From IMG/VR virus record IMGVR_UViG_3300036790_000341, positions 1 to 57,479 of that record: a DNA stretch of 57,479 nucleotides. One strand, 5' to 3'. Every line of letters begins with the position of its first letter. Positions within the stretch are counted from its first letter, which is position 1. The notes beneath the pieces are model-generated. The model ran no database searches. It had not been told where the DNA came from and saw only the letters and a program-made list of their open reading frames with translations. Position numbers and translations under genes: made by a program. Below, piece after piece: positions 5,766 through 51,701 of the stretch. The stretch is from a virus.

Positions 5766-6058
5766 GGGCGGCGCGTCCTGCCGGGCCGGTCGAGCCACGC
5801 GGCGCCCCTGGCGCCGGGGGCGAGCCACAGCCATCCGGCGTCGGCGTCGTGGGTCAGTTCGAGCCATCCGGCGTCGGCTGCGGCGGTGATCTCGTCCTGG
5901 GTGAACATCATCTGCCCGATCCGGATCAGCGGGTAAGCGGAGCCGGGGATGCGTTCGGAGGCGACGCGGGCCCTGCGGTCGGGGTCGCCGTGCTTCTCGA
6001 CCAGCATCAGGATGCCGCCGGCGGTCAGCGGGGGCGCTTCGGGGGCCGTAGTGTCCAC
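5762..6058 (-). CDS. Hypothetical protein with internal repeat
   Basis: 98 aa from GTG 6056-6058, sharing a base with the upstream TAG. Residues ADAGWLEL and ADAGWLWL are an internal duplication that is also visible in the DNA as a repeated 16-bp segment near 5830-5880. The rest is basic and proline-rich. It directly follows the GntR-type gene. Function unknown. Confidence 0.6.
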   Translation of the reverse strand: MDTTAPEAPPLTAGGILMLVEKHGDPDRRARVASERIPGSAYPLIRIGQMMFTQDEITAAADAGWLELTHDADAGWLWLAPGARGAAWLDRPGRTRRP

Positions 6059-6504
6059 TACGGGGCGACCAGCTCGCCGGCGGGAGTGTCTTCGGCGCGG
6101 GGGGCGAAGCGGGCGAGCTGCTCGAGCAGCTGCTTCACGAGGGGTTCGCCGGCGACGTAGCTCTCGGCAGTGGGCACGTCGGCCAGGAGCCGGGTGTACA
6201 GCGCGCGGGCAGAGGCGGCCAGCCAGCCGTCGAGGGGCGCCCAGGCCATGACGTCCGGGTCGAGCAGGTGCCAGTGGTCGGAGGGGCTGATGCGGATGCC
6301 GACGTTGGGTTTGCTGGTCAGCAGCCCCTTGGTGGTGAGGGTGACGAGGGCTTCGCGGACCGCGGTGCGGGAGACTCCGTAGCGCTTCTGGATGTCGTCG
6401 GCGACGAAGCGGTAGCCGACGGGGAGCACGCCGGTGAGGATGTCGCGGCCCATCTGTTCGGAGATCATGTAGGAGAGGTTTCGCTGCATGCCGTCGAGGT
6501 TCAC
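6058..6504 (-). CDS. GntR-family (FadR-type) transcription regulator, truncated
   Basis: 148 aa. Residues 20-75 form a GntR winged helix-turn-helix (ILTGVLPVGYRFVADDIQKR, YGVSRTAVREALVTLTTKG), followed by HWHLLDPDVMAW, which is typical of the link region of the FadR subfamily. The usual all-helical FCD ligand domain (about 120-150 aa) is missing; only about 50 residues follow. It is first in the left operon, so it may repress that operon or host genes. The start at ATG 6502-6504 could also be ATG 6489. Confidence 0.75.
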   Translation of the reverse strand: MNLDGMQRNLSYMISEQMGRDILTGVLPVGYRFVADDIQKRYGVSRTAVREALVTLTTKGLLTSKPNVGIRISPSDHWHLLDPDVMAWAPLDGWLAASARALYTRLLADVPTAESYVAGEPLVKQLLEQLARFAPRAEDTPAGELVAP

Positions 6505-6697: not shown

Positions 6698-8407
6698 TTA
6701 GCTCACCGTGTCCTCGGGATCGGCCGCAGCGCCAACTGCGGTACCGATGAAACTCGCGATCAGGGTCGCCAGGTGGCTGTCGAACCCTGCGATGTTCAAG
6801 ACGCCCCCGTCCTGCGGATCGACGACCTGGTAGCCGTTGGCGGTGGTCGCGGCCACCACCACCCGGGCCGCGGGATTCACGACGCGCCGGTAGTCGCGCA
6901 GGACCGCGGACGGGTGGCCGCCGGCCCAGGTCACGTTGTCCGTGATCAGCACGAAGCCGTCCACGTGCAGCCGATTCGCCAGAGCCCAGGCGATCGGGGA
7001 GCCGATGTCGGTGCCGCCTCCGGTGTGCGGCAGGTTGAACACCTCGGACAGGGACATGTCCTCGCGCAGCTTGGACGCCAGGACCTCGGTGTCGAACTCG
7101 ACCGGCCACACGCCGGCCGAGCCGTGGGTGCGCATCAGGATCTGCGCCACCGCGCTGCCGACGTGGTAGGCCGAGCCCAGCATGGAGCCGCCGGAGACGA
7201 CCTGGTTTCCCATGGAGCCGGACTTGTCGACCGCGACCACGAGCTTGGCGTGGTAGTTCTCGGCCACGGCGAACGACAGGTTGTAGGCAGCGTTGAGTGC
7301 AGTGACGACTTCCGGAACCGGGGTCCAGGTGCGCAGCGGGGCGTTCGGGTTGGGCTGCGCCCGGCCGGACTCGTAGACCTTCAGGGCGAGCAGCAGGTCG
7401 AACGGGTGGATGCGGGCGCGGTACAGCGCCGCCTGATCGGTCAGGCGAGCCGCGACGCGGCCGTTGGACTGCTTGAACGGGCCGAGGGCGCCGTTCTGCG
7501 TCATCCGGGACAGGTTGCGGATCAGCGCAGTCAGCCCCAGGTGCGGGACCAGGGCCTCCCAGACCTCCGGGTGCTTCAGGACGGCGTCGGGCAGGAACTC
7601 CCACGGGACGCCGTACAGGTTGATCGCGCGCACGGCCTTGGCCGGGGTGTCGGCGAGCTGCGCCTCGTGGAACGCCTTGGCGTTCGGCAGCAGCCTGCCG
7701 GCGTGTTCGGGGGTCGTCTTGCCGACCGCTAGGGCGAACAGGACCTCTTCGGCCTCGTTGCGCGGCCGCGGCCGGGCCACGCGCAGCAGGTCTCCGGGCT
7801 TGAACGGCTCGCCGTCGCCGGTCTTGCGGGCACGGGACTTCAGCAGCCGGTAGGCGACGGCGTCCGGGTTGTCCTGGATGAACCAGTTCGTCCAGGCGCG
7901 GCGCACGACCGGGCTGCTGTTGCCCGAGCGTCCGGTGCGGCCCGACGGCTTGCCCTTCAAGTTCTTGTAGTAGCCGAAGAGCCGGGCCAGGTGGTCGGTG
8001 GTGCGGGCGACCATGTGGCATGCGCCGGCCGCGGCCTGCCGGGTCGCCAGGTCCTCGGATGCCAGGGCGGCCGCGAGGACGAACAGGGCCGGCTGGTTCC
8101 TCGGCGCGCGGGCCGGGCGCGCGGTGGAGACCTCGACGGCGAGCCGCACGGCGCGGACACCGTCGGCCGCGAGCGCGTCGCGCACCACCTGCACGTTGGC
8201 GTAGGTGTGCTCGCGCTCGCCGACGCAGTAGGCGCCGCCCTCGGTGCCGAGGATCAGGAAGTCCGCCAGGCGCGTCCACACGTCCTTCGCGAAGACATAC
8301 CCGCCGCCTTCGTTGCGGACCATCTCCGTCTCGCGGCCCGGGATCGGGTTCGTCGCCGGTGTACTGGCGGGGCGGTAGTCGGACAGCGGATCGTTGGTCT
8401 GGGCCAT
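6698..8407 (-). CDS. Ro60-like TROVE-vWA RNA-binding protein
   Basis: 569 aa, close to the usual Ro60 length. Residues about 25-370 form the helical-repeat TROVE ring; 388-560 form a von Willebrand A domain with the MIDAS set DKSGS (394-398), T466 in GGGTDIG and D490 in LITDN. Ro60 proteins bind misfolded RNA in the ring and Y RNAs on its outer surface, and in bacteria they act with 3' exonucleases. ATG 8405-8407 has a good AGGAG site. Directly upstream in the same transcript are two Y-RNA-like hairpins, tRNA-like RNAs and a tRNA-Asn, the arrangement expected for a Ro60/Y-RNA locus. Ro homologues are known in some actinobacteriophages. The domain call is firm; the function in this phage is inferred. 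Confidence 0.93.
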   Translation of the reverse strand: MAQTNDPLSDYRPASTPATNPIPGRETEMVRNEGGGYVFAKDVWTRLADFLILGTEGGAYCVGEREHTYANVQVVRDALAADGVRAVRLAVEVSTARPARAPRNQPALFVLAAALASEDLATRQAAAGACHMVARTTDHLARLFGYYKNLKGKPSGRTGRSGNSSPVVRRAWTNWFIQDNPDAVAYRLLKSRARKTGDGEPFKPGDLLRVARPRPRNEAEEVLFALAVGKTTPEHAGRLLPNAKAFHEAQLADTPAKAVRAINLYGVPWEFLPDAVLKHPEVWEALVPHLGLTALIRNLSRMTQNGALGPFKQSNGRVAARLTDQAALYRARIHPFDLLLALKVYESGRAQPNPNAPLRTWTPVPEVVTALNAAYNLSFAVAENYHAKLVVAVDKSGSMGNQVVSGGSMLGSAYHVGSAVAQILMRTHGSAGVWPVEFDTEVLASKLREDMSLSEVFNLPHTGGGTDIGSPIAWALANRLHVDGFVLITDNVTWAGGHPSAVLRDYRRVVNPAARVVVAATTANGYQVVDPQDGGVLNIAGFDSHLATLIASFIGTAVGAAADPEDTVS

Positions 8408-8532: not shown

Positions 8533-8535
8533 TGG

Positions 8536-8608
8536 CTGCCGCGGCAAGATTCGAACTTGCAACCAATGACTTAACAAGACACTGCTCGGCCAGTTGAGCT
8601 ACACGGCA
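8536..8608 (-). tRNA. tRNA-Asn (GTT)
   Basis: All arms are present on the minus strand: acceptor TGCCGTG/CGCGGCA (7 bp with one G-U), D-stem GCTC/GAGC, anticodon loop TTGTTAA giving GTT, and T-arm GCAAG-TTCGAAT-CTTGC. The anticodon stem GTGTC/GTCAT has one mismatch and one G-U. CCA is not encoded. It could be a working phage tRNA, but its place beside Ro60 also allows a tRNA-mimic role. Confidence 0.8.
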
Positions 8609-8649
8609 TCCGTGGGACGGAGGGCCGGGCGGGTCAAGGTGGTGGCGAC

Positions 8650-8686
8650 CGGTATATAAGTGCTTTGCCAATTAAGCTACGCCCCT
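8650..8686 (-). pseudogene. 5' half of a tRNA
   Basis: The minus strand reads AGGGGCG (acceptor 5' strand), TA, then a perfect D-arm GCTT-AATTGGCA-AAGC, followed by ACTTATATA. No T-arm or matching 3' acceptor strand follows. It directly abuts the tRNA-like RNA at 8687. It is either a decayed tRNA or a deliberate half-tRNA. Confidence 0.55.
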
Positions 8687-8756
8687 GCGGGCGACGGGAC
8701 TCGAACCCGCAACACTCTCTTACTAGGAGATAACCGACTGCCGTTCAACTCGCCCG
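8687..8756 (-). tRNA. tRNA-like RNA carrying the Y-like motif
   Basis: A perfect 7-bp acceptor (CGGGCGA/TCGCCCG) and T-arm (GCGGG-TTCGAGT-CCCGT) are present. The D-region is short, with only a 3-bp stem, and reads GTTGAACGGCAGTCGG, then GTTATCTC. The anticodon stem is weak; the loop CTAGTAA would give AGT (Thr), an unusual anticodon for a bacterial tRNA. The segment from GAACGG to TTATCT repeats in the two hairpin RNAs at 8790 and 8892, so this may be a tRNA-shaped Y RNA rather than a decoding tRNA. Confidence 0.55.
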
Positions 8757-8789
8757 GACCGAAGTCCAGGGTGGTGCTGTGCTCCCGGG

Positions 8790-8843
8790 CGAGCAGTGCG
8801 TGACCGCGGGGATCAGCCAGATAACCCACGGTCGTTCAGCTCG
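8790..8843 (-). ncRNA. Y-RNA-like hairpin RNA, copy B
   Basis: Basal stem CGAGC/GCTCG (8839-8843 with 8790-8794), an internal loop (TGAAC opposite ACGCACT), an upper stem GACCGTGGG with CCCCGCGGTC (8825-8833 with 8802-8811; one bulge and one G-U), and an apical loop starting TTATCT. The layout and conserved unpaired blocks match copy A, while the paired bases differ in compensating ways. It lies in the leader region of the Ro60 gene. Confidence 0.6.
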
Positions 8844-8891
8844 GAAGCCGGTGGTGCAACCCGTGGCACGAGGCGCCCGGGTGGTGGAGAC

Positions 8892-8959
8892 GATCGGGCG
8901 AAGGGAAGAAGCAGCGGGAGGAATCACCAGAAGATAACCCGCTGCCGTTCAGCTCGATC
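8892..8959 (-). ncRNA. Y-RNA-like hairpin RNA, copy A
   Basis: Basal stem GATCG/CGATC (8955-8959 with 8892-8896), asymmetric internal loop (AGCTGAACG opposite a pyrimidine-rich 14-nt strand), and a perfect 8-bp upper stem GCAGCGGG/CCCGCTGC (8938-8945 with 8911-8918) with a 19-nt loop starting TTATCT. The block GGCAGCGGGTTATC closely resembles, from memory, the 5' strand of vertebrate Y RNAs (GGUAGUGGGUUAUC in Y4), in the same structural place. It starts only about 10 nt after the promoter -10. Confidence 0.6.
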
Positions 8960-8967
8960 TGGAGAAC

Positions 8968-8997
8968 AACCTACCCGCGGAATTGCGCGGGTGTCAA
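8968..8997 (-). promoter_or_regulatory. Promoter with palindromic operator for the RNA locus
   Basis: On the minus strand a perfect -35 TTGACA (8992-8997), 18-nt spacer and -10 TAGGTT (8968-8973). The spacer is itself an inverted repeat, CCCGCG-CAATTC-CGCGGG, so a dimeric repressor would sit exactly between -35 and -10. It overlaps the stop codon of the gene ending at 8994. Confidence 0.75.
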
Positions 8998-20790: not shown

Positions 20791-20880
20791 ACCTCCAAAG
20801 TAGCAGTGTCCCCTGGATATCAGCCATAGACCGATTCGGGTAAGCTCGATCCAGACTTGACACACGAGCGAGGAGCTTGC

Positions 20881-21984
20881 ATGAAGATCGCAGTCACGGG
20901 TGGCGCCGGTTTCATCGGCGGCCACGTGGTGGACGAGCTGCTGCGGCGGGGCCACGAGCCCGTGATCTTCGACCACCGGGCCAAGCACCACGCTGTGCCG
21001 GATCACCCGGACCGGTACCTGCCGAGCATGTTGGGCGACACGCGGGACGAAGTCCAGGTCACCGAGCTCGCCGCGCACGTCGAGGGCATCATCCACCTCG
21101 CCTCCGTGCTCGGCACGCAGGAGACCGTGGCCAACCCGCGCCCGGCCGTGATGACCAACGTCATCTCCGGCATGAACGTGTTCGAGGCCGCAGTGCAGTA
21201 CGGCATCCCCGCGGTCAACATCTGCGTCGGCAACGCCGGCATGTCCAACCCCTACTCGGCCAGCAAGACCTGTGTCGAGTCGCTCGGCCACATGTACGTG
21301 CGGGATCGGGGCGCGAAGCTCAACCAGGTGCGCGTCGTCAACGCGTACGGGCCGCGGCAGCTGATGGCCAACCCGTACGGCGTCGGGAAGGTCCGCAAGA
21401 TCATGCCCGCGTTCGTGGCCCGCGCGCTGACCGGCCAGCCGATCGAGATCTACGGCGACGGCGAGCAGGTCTCCGACTGCGTGTTCGTCACCGACGTCGC
21501 CGCCGCACTGGTCAACGCCCTCGAGTTCGCGGCCCAGGGCACCGTCCTGGACCACGTGGTCGAGGTCGGCCCGACCGAGCACATGACCGTGAACGAGGTC
21601 GCCCGCATGGTCGCCCAGCTGGCGCGACCCGAGAACGGCGGACACGAGTCCGAGATCGTCCACCTTCCGATGCGGCCGGGCGAGACGCCGGGCGCGCGGA
21701 TCGTCGCGCGCAACGAGACGATGCACGACATCGGGATGCCGCCCGAGTACCTCAAGCCGCTCAGCCACGGGATCGCCGAGACGGTGGCCTGGTACGCCGA
21801 GCACTGGCTGCCCCAGTACGTGGGGCACCTCCAGTCGATCCACCCGAGCGGCAGGACGCCGCAGGAGAAGGCATTCCTGGGACGGACCTACAACGCCTTC
21901 TCGAACGGGGCCAGCCACCAGGACGAGCCGGTGACCAACCTCACCGGCGACCTCGGGAGCGCCAAGATCACCCGGCATGGCTAA
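20881..21984 (+). CDS. NAD-dependent sugar epimerase/dehydratase
   Basis: 367 aa SDR-extended enzyme. The NAD-binding GGAGFIGG lies at residues 7-14 and the active-site YSASK appears in SNPYSASKTCVE. Later landmarks are typical of UDP-glucose 4-epimerase-like enzymes (VRVVNAYGPRQ, IEIYGDGEQVSDCVFVTDVA). It makes an activated sugar for the two transferases that follow. Start ATG 20881 has a GAGGAG site. Substrate not predictable. Confidence 0.92.
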   Translation: MKIAVTGGAGFIGGHVVDELLRRGHEPVIFDHRAKHHAVPDHPDRYLPSMLGDTRDEVQVTELAAHVEGIIHLASVLGTQETVANPRPAVMTNVISGMNVFEAAVQYGIPAVNICVGNAGMSNPYSASKTCVESLGHMYVRDRGAKLNQVRVVNAYGPRQLMANPYGVGKVRKIMPAFVARALTGQPIEIYGDGEQVSDCVFVTDVAAALVNALEFAAQGTVLDHVVEVGPTEHMTVNEVARMVAQLARPENGGHESEIVHLPMRPGETPGARIVARNETMHDIGMPPEYLKPLSHGIAETVAWYAEHWLPQYVGHLQSIHPSGRTPQEKAFLGRTYNAFSNGASHQDEPVTNLTGDLGSAKITRHG

Positions 21985-23029
21985 GGGCTGGTTGTGGGCT
22001 GCGGACGCAGGCGGGTGCGGCTGGTACCGTACGGTCATCGTCGCCGAAGCACTCCGCGGCCTCGGCCACGACGTCGGCCAGGGCATCACGATCGACGACG
22101 ACTACCAGGACGCCGACGCCGTCCTCGGCCAGCGCATCTGCATCCCCGGATCCTCGATCGCCTGGGCGCGCTGGAACTTCCAGCACGAGAAGACCACCGT
22201 CTTCGACGCCGACGACGACTACTTCCACATGTACCAGCACCCCGAGTTCGGGCCGGCCGCAGTCGAGTACGGCAATTCGCGCGTCCAGGCGCGGCTCCTG
22301 GCCAACGCCGCCAGCTCGACCTACACCACCTGCGCCACACCCAGGATCGCCGAGGCGTTCGCCCCGTTCTGCGACAACGTCCTCGTCGTGCCGAACGGGC
22401 TGCCCGAGAGGTACCTGGAAGTCGACGCCCCGTACGAGCGGCGGCGGTACAACCCCGAGACGCACCAGTACGACGACGGCTACACCTCACCGGCCCCGCC
22501 GATCGTCGGGTGGGCCGGGTCGTCGTTCACGCAGTGGGAACTGACCACCACCGTCAAGGACGCCCTGTCCCGGGTGGACGAGTGGGGAGGCCGGCTGCAC
22601 GTCGTCGGCGTCCCCTACCCGATCATGCGCAAGACCGGTCTCGTCAAGCCCGGCGTCTCGGTCACCGGCTGGATCGACGGCACCCACAAGTACCTCGACG
22701 CCATCGACTTCGACATCTGGGTCGCCCCCTACCGGCAGAGCGACTACAACAACGCCAAGGTGGCGACCAAGGCCCTCGAGGCCGCGTTCCTCGGCATCCC
22801 GATCGTCGCTTCCGCCACCACCCCCTACCGGCACTTCGTCCAGGACGGCGAGACCGGATTCCTCGTCGAACCCGGCGGCGACTGGGAGACCCCGATCCGC
22901 ACGCTGATCAACGACCCGGCGCTGCGCGAGTCCATGGGCCGCGCCGCCCGCGAGAACGCCCGGGAGTTCACCATCGAGAAGCTGGCCGCCCAACTCTGGG
23001 ACCCGATCCTGTTTGGAGACCGCAAGTGA
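21977..23029 (+). CDS. GT-B glycosyltransferase (GT4-like)
   Basis: 350 aa. Start overlaps the epimerase by 8 nt. Rossmann-type halves are seen in CGWYRTVIVAEALRGLGHDV and PPIVGWAGSS; the donor-site pattern KALEAAFLGIPIVASATTPY with GETGFLVEPG is characteristic of GT-B retaining transferases. It probably transfers a sugar to a phage protein or a host surface glycan. The neighbours are an epimerase and a second transferase. Confidence 0.88.
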   Translation: MAKGWLWAADAGGCGWYRTVIVAEALRGLGHDVGQGITIDDDYQDADAVLGQRICIPGSSIAWARWNFQHEKTTVFDADDDYFHMYQHPEFGPAAVEYGNSRVQARLLANAASSTYTTCATPRIAEAFAPFCDNVLVVPNGLPERYLEVDAPYERRRYNPETHQYDDGYTSPAPPIVGWAGSSFTQWELTTTVKDALSRVDEWGGRLHVVGVPYPIMRKTGLVKPGVSVTGWIDGTHKYLDAIDFDIWVAPYRQSDYNNAKVATKALEAAFLGIPIVASATTPYRHFVQDGETGFLVEPGGDWETPIRTLINDPALRESMGRAARENAREFTIEKLAAQLWDPILFGDRK

Positions 23030-50027: not shown

Positions 50028-51701
50028 GTGTATCCGTCCCATGGCGCCGACAGCCTTGCCGACACCATCACCCTTCCAGCCGTCCCATTCCACGGGAGCG
50101 CCATCGAGACCGTGAGCCCCTCGCGCGTGGCAGTCGCAGCCCCCACGCGCCGCCGTGACCGGCGCGACACCAACCCGCTGCCCGCGTGCCCCACGGACGC
50201 CGAGACGCACCTGTACAGTCGGCGTCGCTACTATCCCGTCGCGGCCTTTTCCGCGATCTCCTTCGCGCTCCTGGCCGCATCGCAGAGCCGCTTCATCCTC
50301 ACCGCCGATTGGGCCTGGGCGCTCGCCCCGTTCTTCACCTTCACCACGGCCTACTTCCTCCTGGCTGGCTGGGTCAACCTGGGCACCCGCGACTTCAACC
50401 GCGACGCCCACGACGAACTAGTCCACCAACACACACACACACCCGCGCCTTCCCTCGACGTGTTCCTGCCCGTCTGCCGCGAACCCGCGGCCGTGCTGCA
50501 CAACACCTGGACCGGCGTCTTCGAGCTCATGGAGGCCTACCGCGGCCGCTGCAACGTCTACGTCCTCGACGACGGCGCCGACCCAGAATGCGCCCGCATG
50601 GCCGGTGACTTCGGCTTCACCTACCTCGCGCGCCCCGAAAAGGGCTACGCCACCAACTACCGCGGCTGGTACAAGAAAGCCGGCAATCTGCGCCACGGCT
50701 TCGCCCACTCCGATGGCGAGTTCATCCTCGTGCTCGACGCCGACTTCAACCCCCGCGCCGACCTTCCCGACCACCTGCTGCCCTACCTTATCGACGACCC
50801 GCAGCTCGGGATCGTCCAATCCCCGCAGTTCTTCCGCACGCACCGGGGCCAAACCCGGATGGAGCGCGGTGCCAGCGCCGTCCAGGAGCTCTTCTACCGC
50901 ACCGTGCAGGTTTCCCGGGACCAGCGCGGCGGCGCCATCTGCGTCGGCTCCTGCGCGATCTACCGGCGCGAAGCTCTCGAAGCGAACGGCGGGGCGACCC
51001 TGATCGGCCACTCCGAGGACGTGCACACCGGCTTCGACCTACGCCGCCAGGGCTGGGGCCTGCGCTACCTGCCGGTGCCGCTGGCCACCGGCGTGTGCCC
51101 CGACAACCCCGACTCGTTCTTCGCCCAGCAGTACCGGTGGTGCATGGGTTCGATGGCCCTGCTGTGCCATCGCCGCTTCTGGAAGCACCGCATGCCGCTG
51201 CGCACCCGCGCCTGCTACGTCTCCGGGTTCTGCTACTACGTGCACACCGCCGTATCCACCCTCGTGACGCCCGTGATCCCTTTGGTGATGCTCCTGGCGA
51301 TCCCCGGGCACGTGCGCCTGGTGAACTACGCCTACATCGCTCCGTCGATGCTCTACAACCTCCTGATCTTCCCGCTCTGGCACCGCTGCCGCTTCGGGCC
51401 CTCGGCGTACATGGCGAAGCTGCTCTACGGCTGGGCCCACCTGTTCGCTCTCATCGACCTGCTGCGCAGGCGCCCGATGGGCTGGAAGCCCACCGGCGCC
51501 GCTGGCGCGGCCCGGCGCAACGGGCGCCTGTGGGCCGGCATGTGGGGCTGGTCGGTCTCCACCGGACTGGCGTGGACCGGGATCGCCGCATGGCGCACCA
51601 CCACCGAAGGCATGCGGTTCGCGCCCATCACGCTGCTCGGCGCCCTCACCCTCTGGATCACGCTGCTCGCCATCGCCTCCCGGAAGGGGGAAGCCCGATG
51701 A
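50028..51701 (+). CDS. Processive GT2 polysaccharide synthase (CslA/BcsA-like)
   Basis: 557 aa from GTG 50028 with AGGGGGAG. All four signature sites of processive beta-glycosyltransferases are present: D in VLDDGAD (181-183), DAD (237-239), ED in GHSEDVHTG (330-331) and QQYRW (367-371). Two TM helices precede the catalytic domain and about four follow. It should make and export a beta-linked glycan at the host membrane. No PilZ domain is present. Its start-stop overlap with the GH26 gene says the two act together. Very unusual cargo for a phage. Confidence 0.9.
   Translation: MYPSHGADSLADTITLPAVPFHGSAIETVSPSRVAVAAPTRRRDRRDTNPLPACPTDAETHLYSRRRYYPVAAFSAISFALLAASQSRFILTADWAWALAPFFTFTTAYFLLAGWVNLGTRDFNRDAHDELVHQHTHTPAPSLDVFLPVCREPAAVLHNTWTGVFELMEAYRGRCNVYVLDDGADPECARMAGDFGFTYLARPEKGYATNYRGWYKKAGNLRHGFAHSDGEFILVLDADFNPRADLPDHLLPYLIDDPQLGIVQSPQFFRTHRGQTRMERGASAVQELFYRTVQVSRDQRGGAICVGSCAIYRREALEANGGATLIGHSEDVHTGFDLRRQGWGLRYLPVPLATGVCPDNPDSFFAQQYRWCMGSMALLCHRRFWKHRMPLRTRACYVSGFCYYVHTAVSTLVTPVIPLVMLLAIPGHVRLVNYAYIAPSMLYNLLIFPLWHRCRFGPSAYMAKLLYGWAHLFALIDLLRRRPMGWKPTGAAGAARRNGRLWAGMWGWSVSTGLAWTGIAAWRTTTEGMRFAPITLLGALTLWITLLAIASRKGEAR

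What the first reader, a model, noticed from the sequence alone, without database searches (positions are those of the whole stretch)
8687..8756. A tRNA-shaped RNA that carries the Y-like sequence block
It has a perfect acceptor stem and T-arm, but its D/anticodon side contains the same GAACGGCAG...GGTTATCT block found in the two hairpins, with a 3-bp D-stem and an implausible AGT anticodon. It may be an evolutionary link: a tRNA turned into a Y RNA, or a Y RNA turned into a tRNA mimic.
Basis: partly seen in the sequence, partly recalled or inferred. Interest (0 to 1): 0.8.

Follow-up and report, generated by a model that had tools for sequence, protein, structure and literature searches.

The report
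Phage YrlA-type Y RNA, miscalled tRNA
The supposed odd tRNA is one half of a longer phage Y RNA (YrlA type) that sits beside a Ro60 gene and carries a rearranged tRNA-like domain, so it is a further member of a known RNA class that tRNA-finding software reads in the wrong register.

Summary
ARAGORN calls 8687-8756 (minus) tRNA-Thr(AGT), and the GAACGGCAG...GGTTATCT block occurs exactly three times in the window, all here. But the tRNA call is a register error. The true RNA is about 8760-8622 (minus), a YrlA-type Y RNA: a terminal stem and a Y stem enclose a circularly permuted tRNA mimic (T-arm, acceptor-like hairpin, D-arm). The cluster also holds two simpler Y RNAs, a genuine tRNA-Asn(GTT) and a Ro60 (TROVE+vWA) gene. 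A covariance model built without the window finds the RNA at 84.8 bits (E about 1e-21). The permuted acceptor, T-arm and Y stem covary across 28 Ro-associated RNAs (0/500 shuffles reach the observed values); the conventional tRNA acceptor gets no support and has probability 0 in full-length folding. About 13% of homologous YrlAs are likewise called tRNAs by ARAGORN, with unrelated anticodons, and several GenBank phage records carry the same error. YrlA RNAs, their tRNA mimicry and their presence in phages are published. Verdict: new member of a known kind. Likely role (inferred): scaffold linking phage Ro60 to a host 3'-5' exoribonuclease.

The parts
8622..8760 (-). YrlA-type Y RNA (whole; ends are estimates from the terminal stem)
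   Evidence: Model R1, built without the window, matches 8769-8608 full length at 84.8 bits; fold and pairing
8751..8757 (-). 5' strand of terminal Y stem CCGGGCG, pairs with 8625-8631; misread by ARAGORN as the tRNA acceptor 5' strand
   Evidence: Pairs listed; pairing probability 0.999; own-genome outer stem 7.7 vs 5.4 in swapped controls
8625..8631 (-). 3' strand of terminal Y stem CGCCCGG
8728..8746 (-). Y block GAACGGCAGTCGGTTATCT; GGCAGUCGGU (8742-8733) is the 5' strand of the inner Y stem
   Evidence: Exact match; inner stem covaries
8644..8653 (-). 3' strand of inner Y stem, ACCGGUCGCC
   Evidence: one A-C mismatch (8739 with 8647)
8694..8710 (-). T-arm of the tRNA-like module, GCGGG UUCGAGU CCCGU
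   Evidence: Rfam YrlA and R1 alignments; 100% of cells paired over 28 sequences
8680..8693 (-). Permuted acceptor-like hairpin CGCCC-gcag-GGGCG
   Evidence: 100% of cells paired over 28 sequences, 4 of 5 pairs with changes on both sides; probability 0.98
8662..8677 (-). D-arm of the tRNA-like module, GCUU AAUUGGCA AAGC, with a GG in the loop
   Evidence: D-stem 100% paired, one U-A for C-G change on both sides
8687..8756 (-). The reported 'tRNA-Thr(AGT)': a register error inside the YrlA RNA
   Evidence: ARAGORN call; Rfam tRNA 21.0 < 29 bits; acceptor not conserved
8781..8848 (-). Second Y RNA (plain hairpin, no tRNA-like domain)
   Evidence: Y block at 8819-8837; hairpin
8892..8959 (-). First Y RNA (plain hairpin, no tRNA-like domain)
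   Evidence: Y block at 8932-8950; hairpin, z-score -2.84
8533..8608 (-). Genuine tRNA-Asn(GTT)
   Evidence: ARAGORN and Rfam 57.6 bits
6698..8407 (-). Ro60 ortholog gene (TROVE + vWA_Ro60), ATG start at 8407
   Evidence: Pfam, PHROG 850, 33-39% identity to nine phage Ro proteins, PDB profile match to 2nvo and 1yvp
8968..8997 (-). Possible promoter TTGACA-N18-TAGGTT before the Y RNA cluster
   Evidence: Read by eye; the consensus scan did not list it, so weak

Best explanation
The feature is the middle part of a phage-encoded YrlA-type Y RNA of about 139 nt (8760-8622, minus). Its terminal and inner Y stems are the presumed site for the Ro60 protein encoded just downstream; its apical domain is a circularly permuted tRNA mimic (T-arm, acceptor-like hairpin, D-arm). 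Shown here: anatomy, covariation, neighbourhood and homology. Inferred: it is made together with two plain Y RNAs, tRNA-Asn and Ro60; the phage Ro60 ring binds its stem; the tRNA-like domain tethers or gates a host 3'-5' exoribonuclease such as PNPase (as in the Deinococcus RYPER complex) and may be modified by host tRNA enzymes, so that structured or damaged RNAs are processed during infection. The confidence below is for the identity; the tethering mechanism I put at about 0.5.
For: Ro60 gene next door. Rfam YrlA matches the module. Covariance model built from 38 homologs without the window finds 8769-8608 at 84.8 bits, E about 1e-21. YrlA structure over 28 sequences: 93.9% of cells paired vs 76.6% shuffled, covariation 0.522 vs 0.164, 0 of 500 shuffles as high. 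Own-genome specificity of terminal stem and permuted acceptor. Full-length fold: terminal stem 0.999, permuted acceptor 0.98, conventional acceptor 0.0. Same RNA next to Ro-like genes in many actinophages. Literature for the mechanism: PMC4726728, PMC8394870.
Against: Rfam YrlA score (34.7) is under that family's gathering score (69), and the Y stem was not matched by the Rfam model. T-arm and inner Y stem reach only about 0.57 probability in the single-sequence fold, and energy is not better than shuffles (z 0.39). Expression, Ro60 binding and PNPase binding are untested; the host is unknown.
Confidence: 0.95

Rival explanations
1. It is a functional but unusual tRNA-Thr(AGT) that happens to carry the Y block.
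For: ARAGORN call; a 7-bp acceptor can be drawn; the isolated 72-nt stretch folds that way.
Against: Rfam tRNA 21.0 bits, under the cut-off, D-arm skipped. Conventional acceptor not above control in homologs: 47.3% vs 44.1% paired, 80 of 500 shuffles as high; 3.98 vs 3.82. Probability 0.0 in the full-length RNA and 9.6 kcal/mol above the minimum when forced. Homologs called tRNA carry unrelated anticodons.
Confidence: 0.01
2. Same RNA, different job: the YrlA tRNA-like domain acts chiefly as a decoy or competitive inhibitor of tRNA-recognising enzymes, for example anticodon nucleases used in anti-phage defence, rather than as a tether for an exoribonuclease.
For: Competitive inhibition of an anticodon nuclease was suggested for Salmonella YrlA in PMC7790460; that phages meet tRNA-cutting defences is general knowledge; a tRNA gene sits in the cluster.
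Against: The module has no anticodon arm. The experimentally tested role of a bacterial Y RNA is tethering Rsr to PNPase (PMC4726728).
Confidence: 0.25
3. An evolutionary intermediate or bistable RNA: it switches between the YrlA fold and a conventional cloverleaf.
For: The strand CGGGCGA can pair with either CGCCCGG (8631-8625) or TCGCCCG (8694-8688).
Against: The alternative pairing is not conserved in homologs and is negligible in the ensemble; it is explained by CGCCC occurring in both the terminal stem and the acceptor-like hairpin.
Confidence: 0.03

Closest known systems
YrlA RNA (Rfam RF02553; Salmonella YrlA, structure 6CU1)
   Same: Terminal stem from 5' and 3' ends, permuted tRNA-like domain of T-arm, acceptor-like hairpin and D-arm, next to a Ro60/Rsr gene; length about 139 nt, within the 90-150 nt given in PMC8394870
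   Different: Y stem sequence too diverged for the Rfam model, so the match covers only the tRNA-like module at 34.7 bits; phage-borne; no rtcBA RNA repair genes seen among the proteins scanned
Actinophage YrlA RNAs next to Ro-like genes (Sparky, Cashline, BearBQ, FuzzBuster, SM23, prophiGD43A-5)
   Same: Same Y motif GGTTAYC 24-26 nt before the T-arm, same module order, upstream of the Ro-like gene
   Different: Ro protein only 36-39% identical; window D-stem has U-A where nearly all have C-G
Deinococcus Y RNA / Rsr / PNPase complex (RYPER)
   Same: Same protein family (2nvo matched by the phage Ro profile) and Y RNA partner; likely works like it
   Different: No evidence here for PNPase binding; not tested
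Canonical tRNA
   Same: T-loop UUCGAGU; a seven-pair acceptor can be drawn
   Different: No D-arm in that register, sub-threshold score, acceptor shows no covariation

Membership tests
YrlA-type bacterial Y RNA | Encoded near a Ro60/Rsr ortholog | tested here: met
   TROVE + vWA_Ro60 gene at 6698-8407, same strand
YrlA-type bacterial Y RNA | Long stem formed by the 5' and 3' ends | tested here: met
   CCGGGCG/CGCCCGG, probability 0.999; own-genome specific in homologs
YrlA-type bacterial Y RNA | Apical domain resembling T, acceptor and D arms, in permuted order | tested here: met
   Rfam YrlA positions 27-81; helices 2-4 all 100% paired over 28 sequences
YrlA-type bacterial Y RNA | Score above the Rfam RF02553 gathering threshold | tested here: not met
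   34.7 vs 69 bits. The same holds for the other actinophage YrlAs listed (26-42 bits), so this reflects the scope of the model; a model made from Ro-linked homologs gives 84.8 bits
YrlA-type bacterial Y RNA | Binds Ro60/Rsr; substrate of tRNA modification enzymes | not testable with these tools
   Needs biochemistry
Canonical tRNA (tRNA-Thr) | Cloverleaf with D-arm, score above the Rfam tRNA threshold | tested here: not met
   21.0 vs 29 bits, D-arm skipped
Canonical tRNA (tRNA-Thr) | Conserved acceptor stem between the ends 8756-8750 and 8688-8694 | tested here: not met
   No covariation over 28 sequences, not above control
Canonical tRNA (tRNA-Thr) | Aminoacylation and use in translation | not testable with these tools
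   Needs experiment
Ro60/Rsr protein | TROVE domain and vWA domain with DxSxS...T...D metal-site residues | tested here: met
   Pfam; D394, S396, S398, T466 and D490 invariant in the ten-protein alignment; that these form the metal site is general knowledge of vWA domains

The most novel reading that the evidence does not exclude
The RNA is bistable: held as a YrlA Y RNA when Ro60-bound, but convertible by 3' trimming into a conventional tRNA-like cloverleaf with a function of its own.
Probability: 0.03. Interest if true: 0.65.

Novelty: new member of a known kind. Interest (0 to 1): 0.2.

Why it matters
It settles what the odd tRNA is, and it exposes a recurrent annotation error: tRNA finders read part of a YrlA RNA as a tRNA with a meaningless anticodon (about 11 of 85 homologs here, and several GenBank phage records). 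Phage tRNA inventories near Ro-like genes should be screened for this. The locus also adds a divergent phage Ro60 with three Y RNAs, useful for asking why phages carry this RNA machinery.

Tried and rejected
The search for related loci with the single Ro protein found nothing in IMG/VR; an alignment query worked. Chance similarity of the Y block was rejected. The canonical-tRNA and tRNA-to-Y 'link' readings were rejected on covariation, energies and Rfam scores. L104 and L107 in the homolog set look like tandem tRNAs and were left out of the homolog count and of alignments A2 and A3; the averages still include them. Relatives of a virus record cannot be drawn. The key papers Chen 2014 and Wang 2018 are not held, so their content is cited through other papers. 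A first attempt to force the conventional acceptor clashed with the T-stem at base 8694 and was redone.

Full report
Observation. ARAGORN reports two tRNAs in the window: tRNA-Asn(GTT) at 8608-8533 and tRNA-Thr(AGT) at 8756-8687, both on the minus strand. Only the first passes Rfam (57.6 bits). The second gets 21.0 bits against a cut-off of 29, with the D-arm skipped.

Surroundings. The gene downstream on the same strand (8407-6698) encodes a Ro60 ortholog with TROVE and Ro60-type vWA domains, PHROG 850 'RNA-binding protein'. A profile of ten phage Ro proteins matches Deinococcus Rsr (2nvo) and vertebrate Ro60 structures. The order on the minus strand is: Y hairpin (8959-8892), Y hairpin (8848-8781), YrlA (8760-8622), tRNA-Asn (8608-8533), Ro60 gene. 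The window is a 57,479-base virus record with tape measure, portal, head and scaffold genes. The best-matching portal proteins are from Streptomyces phages, which suggests an actinophage, but the host is not known.

What the RNA is. Rfam YrlA (RF02553) matches 8714-8662 over model positions 27-81, the tRNA-like module (34.7 bits). In YrlA the order of arms is permuted: T-arm (8710-8694), acceptor-like hairpin CGCCC-gcag-GGGCG (8693-8680), then D-arm (8677-8662). The strand that ARAGORN uses as the acceptor 5' strand (CGGGCGA) belongs to the terminal Y stem, CCGGGCG 8757-8751 with CGCCCGG 8631-8625. The Y block forms the inner stem with ACCGGUCGCC 8653-8644. ARAGORN succeeds because CGCCC occurs both in the terminal stem and in the acceptor-like hairpin.

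Independent tests. (1) Homologs: the same module was found in loci around Ro60 genes of actinophages, IMG/VR contigs and bacterial genomes, plus one Phabba locus away from Ro: 87 distinct sequences, of which 85 remain when two probable tandem tRNAs are set aside (the averages below are over the 87). In a subset of 64 chosen for a G[AG]TT-type motif 18-34 nt before the T-arm, which includes the window, the motif lies mostly 24-26 nt before it. (2) Own-genome pairing: outer-stem helix 7.7 against 5.4 when 3' flanks are swapped between genomes; permuted acceptor 4.98 against 2.70; conventional acceptor 3.98 against 3.82. The homologs were selected for a permuted hairpin, so the permuted figure is inflated by selection; the outer stem and the conventional acceptor were not selected for. 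(3) RNAalifold on 38 homologs without the window finds the Y stem, T-arm, permuted acceptor and D-arm, 15 of 22 pairs with compensatory changes. (4) A covariance model from that alignment finds the window at 84.8 bits, full length. The model also gives weaker matches elsewhere: up to 39 bits outside the known YrlAs in three tRNA-bearing loci, and 56-74 bits in others, where I did not establish whether these are further YrlAs or tandem tRNAs. (5) Pair counts on 28 sequences with the window: 93.9% paired against 76.6% shuffled, covariation 0.522 against 0.164, no shuffle as high; conventional acceptor 47.3% against 44.1%, 80 of 500 shuffles as high. The latter depends on how the variable 5' region is aligned. 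The window itself adds a change on both sides, U-A for C-G, in the D-stem. (6) Folding 8762-8620: terminal stem 0.999, permuted acceptor 0.98, conventional acceptor 0.0; the structure forced to the conventional form is 9.6 kcal/mol above the minimum.

The error is general. ARAGORN of the 87 sequences, 11 after removal of the two tandem tRNAs and counting the window, with unrelated anticodons. Public records show the same thing: annotated tRNA features overlap YrlA matches in SM23 (tRNA-Asn), prophiGD43A-5 (tRNA-Thr), Boopy (tRNA-Leu), Myrna (tRNA-Asp), Big4 (tRNA-Ser), Magritte (tRNA-Arg) and, with a lower score, Xanthomonas phage 10KY502B (tRNA-Thr), whose record also holds a TROVE match.

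How it works. From the literature: Rsr binds the lower stem of bacterial Y RNAs, and Deinococcus Y RNA tethers Rsr to PNPase for decay of structured RNA (PMC4726728). YrlA is 90-150 nt with a terminal stem and a domain resembling D, T and acceptor arms, and is a substrate of DusA and TruB (PMC8394870). A Listeria phage study proposes highly transcribed Y RNAs near an Rsr-like gene and notes Y RNAs in mycobacteriophages (PMC12282133). By analogy, the phage Ro60 ring would be held by this RNA next to a host exoribonuclease. That step is inference. A decoy role for the tRNA-like domain is the main functional rival (PMC7790460).

Novelty. YrlA RNAs, their tRNA mimicry and their occurrence in phages are published. 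tblastn finds Ro-like matches in 348 phage records. This is a divergent new member. The annotation error is a useful by-product; I did not find it described in the papers held, but that search was shallow.

Noticed in passing
L001, L009, L292, L293, L294, L295, L296: Deposited phage records carry tRNA features (Asn, Thr, Leu, Asp, Ser, Arg, Thr) that overlap YrlA matches of 76-137 bits; probably the same register error.
   Followed up: partly
L003:2970-3136 and L293:383-548: In mycobacteriophages Phabba and Myrna the YrlA RNA lies inside the tRNA array, about 36-37 kb from the Ro gene, instead of next to it.
   Followed up: no
8973-8992: Perfect inverted repeat ACCCGCG-CAATTC-CGCGGGT, between TTGACA and TAGGTT upstream of the Y RNA cluster; could be an operator in the promoter spacer, though the scan lists it as terminator-like.
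   Followed up: no
1976-2650 and 6058-6504: An Rv2179c-like 3'-5' exoribonuclease domain protein and a GntR-family regulator are encoded downstream of the Ro60 gene on the same strand; the former could be a phage partner for the Ro RNP.
   Followed up: no
20857-23029 and 50028-51701: Plus-strand sugar-modification genes: NAD-dependent epimerase and glycosyltransferases.
   Followed up: no
L012:2362-2440: The IMG/VR contig whose Ro protein is the best match also has a plain Y RNA hairpin between its YrlA and its Ro gene, a mixed set as in the window.
   Followed up: partly
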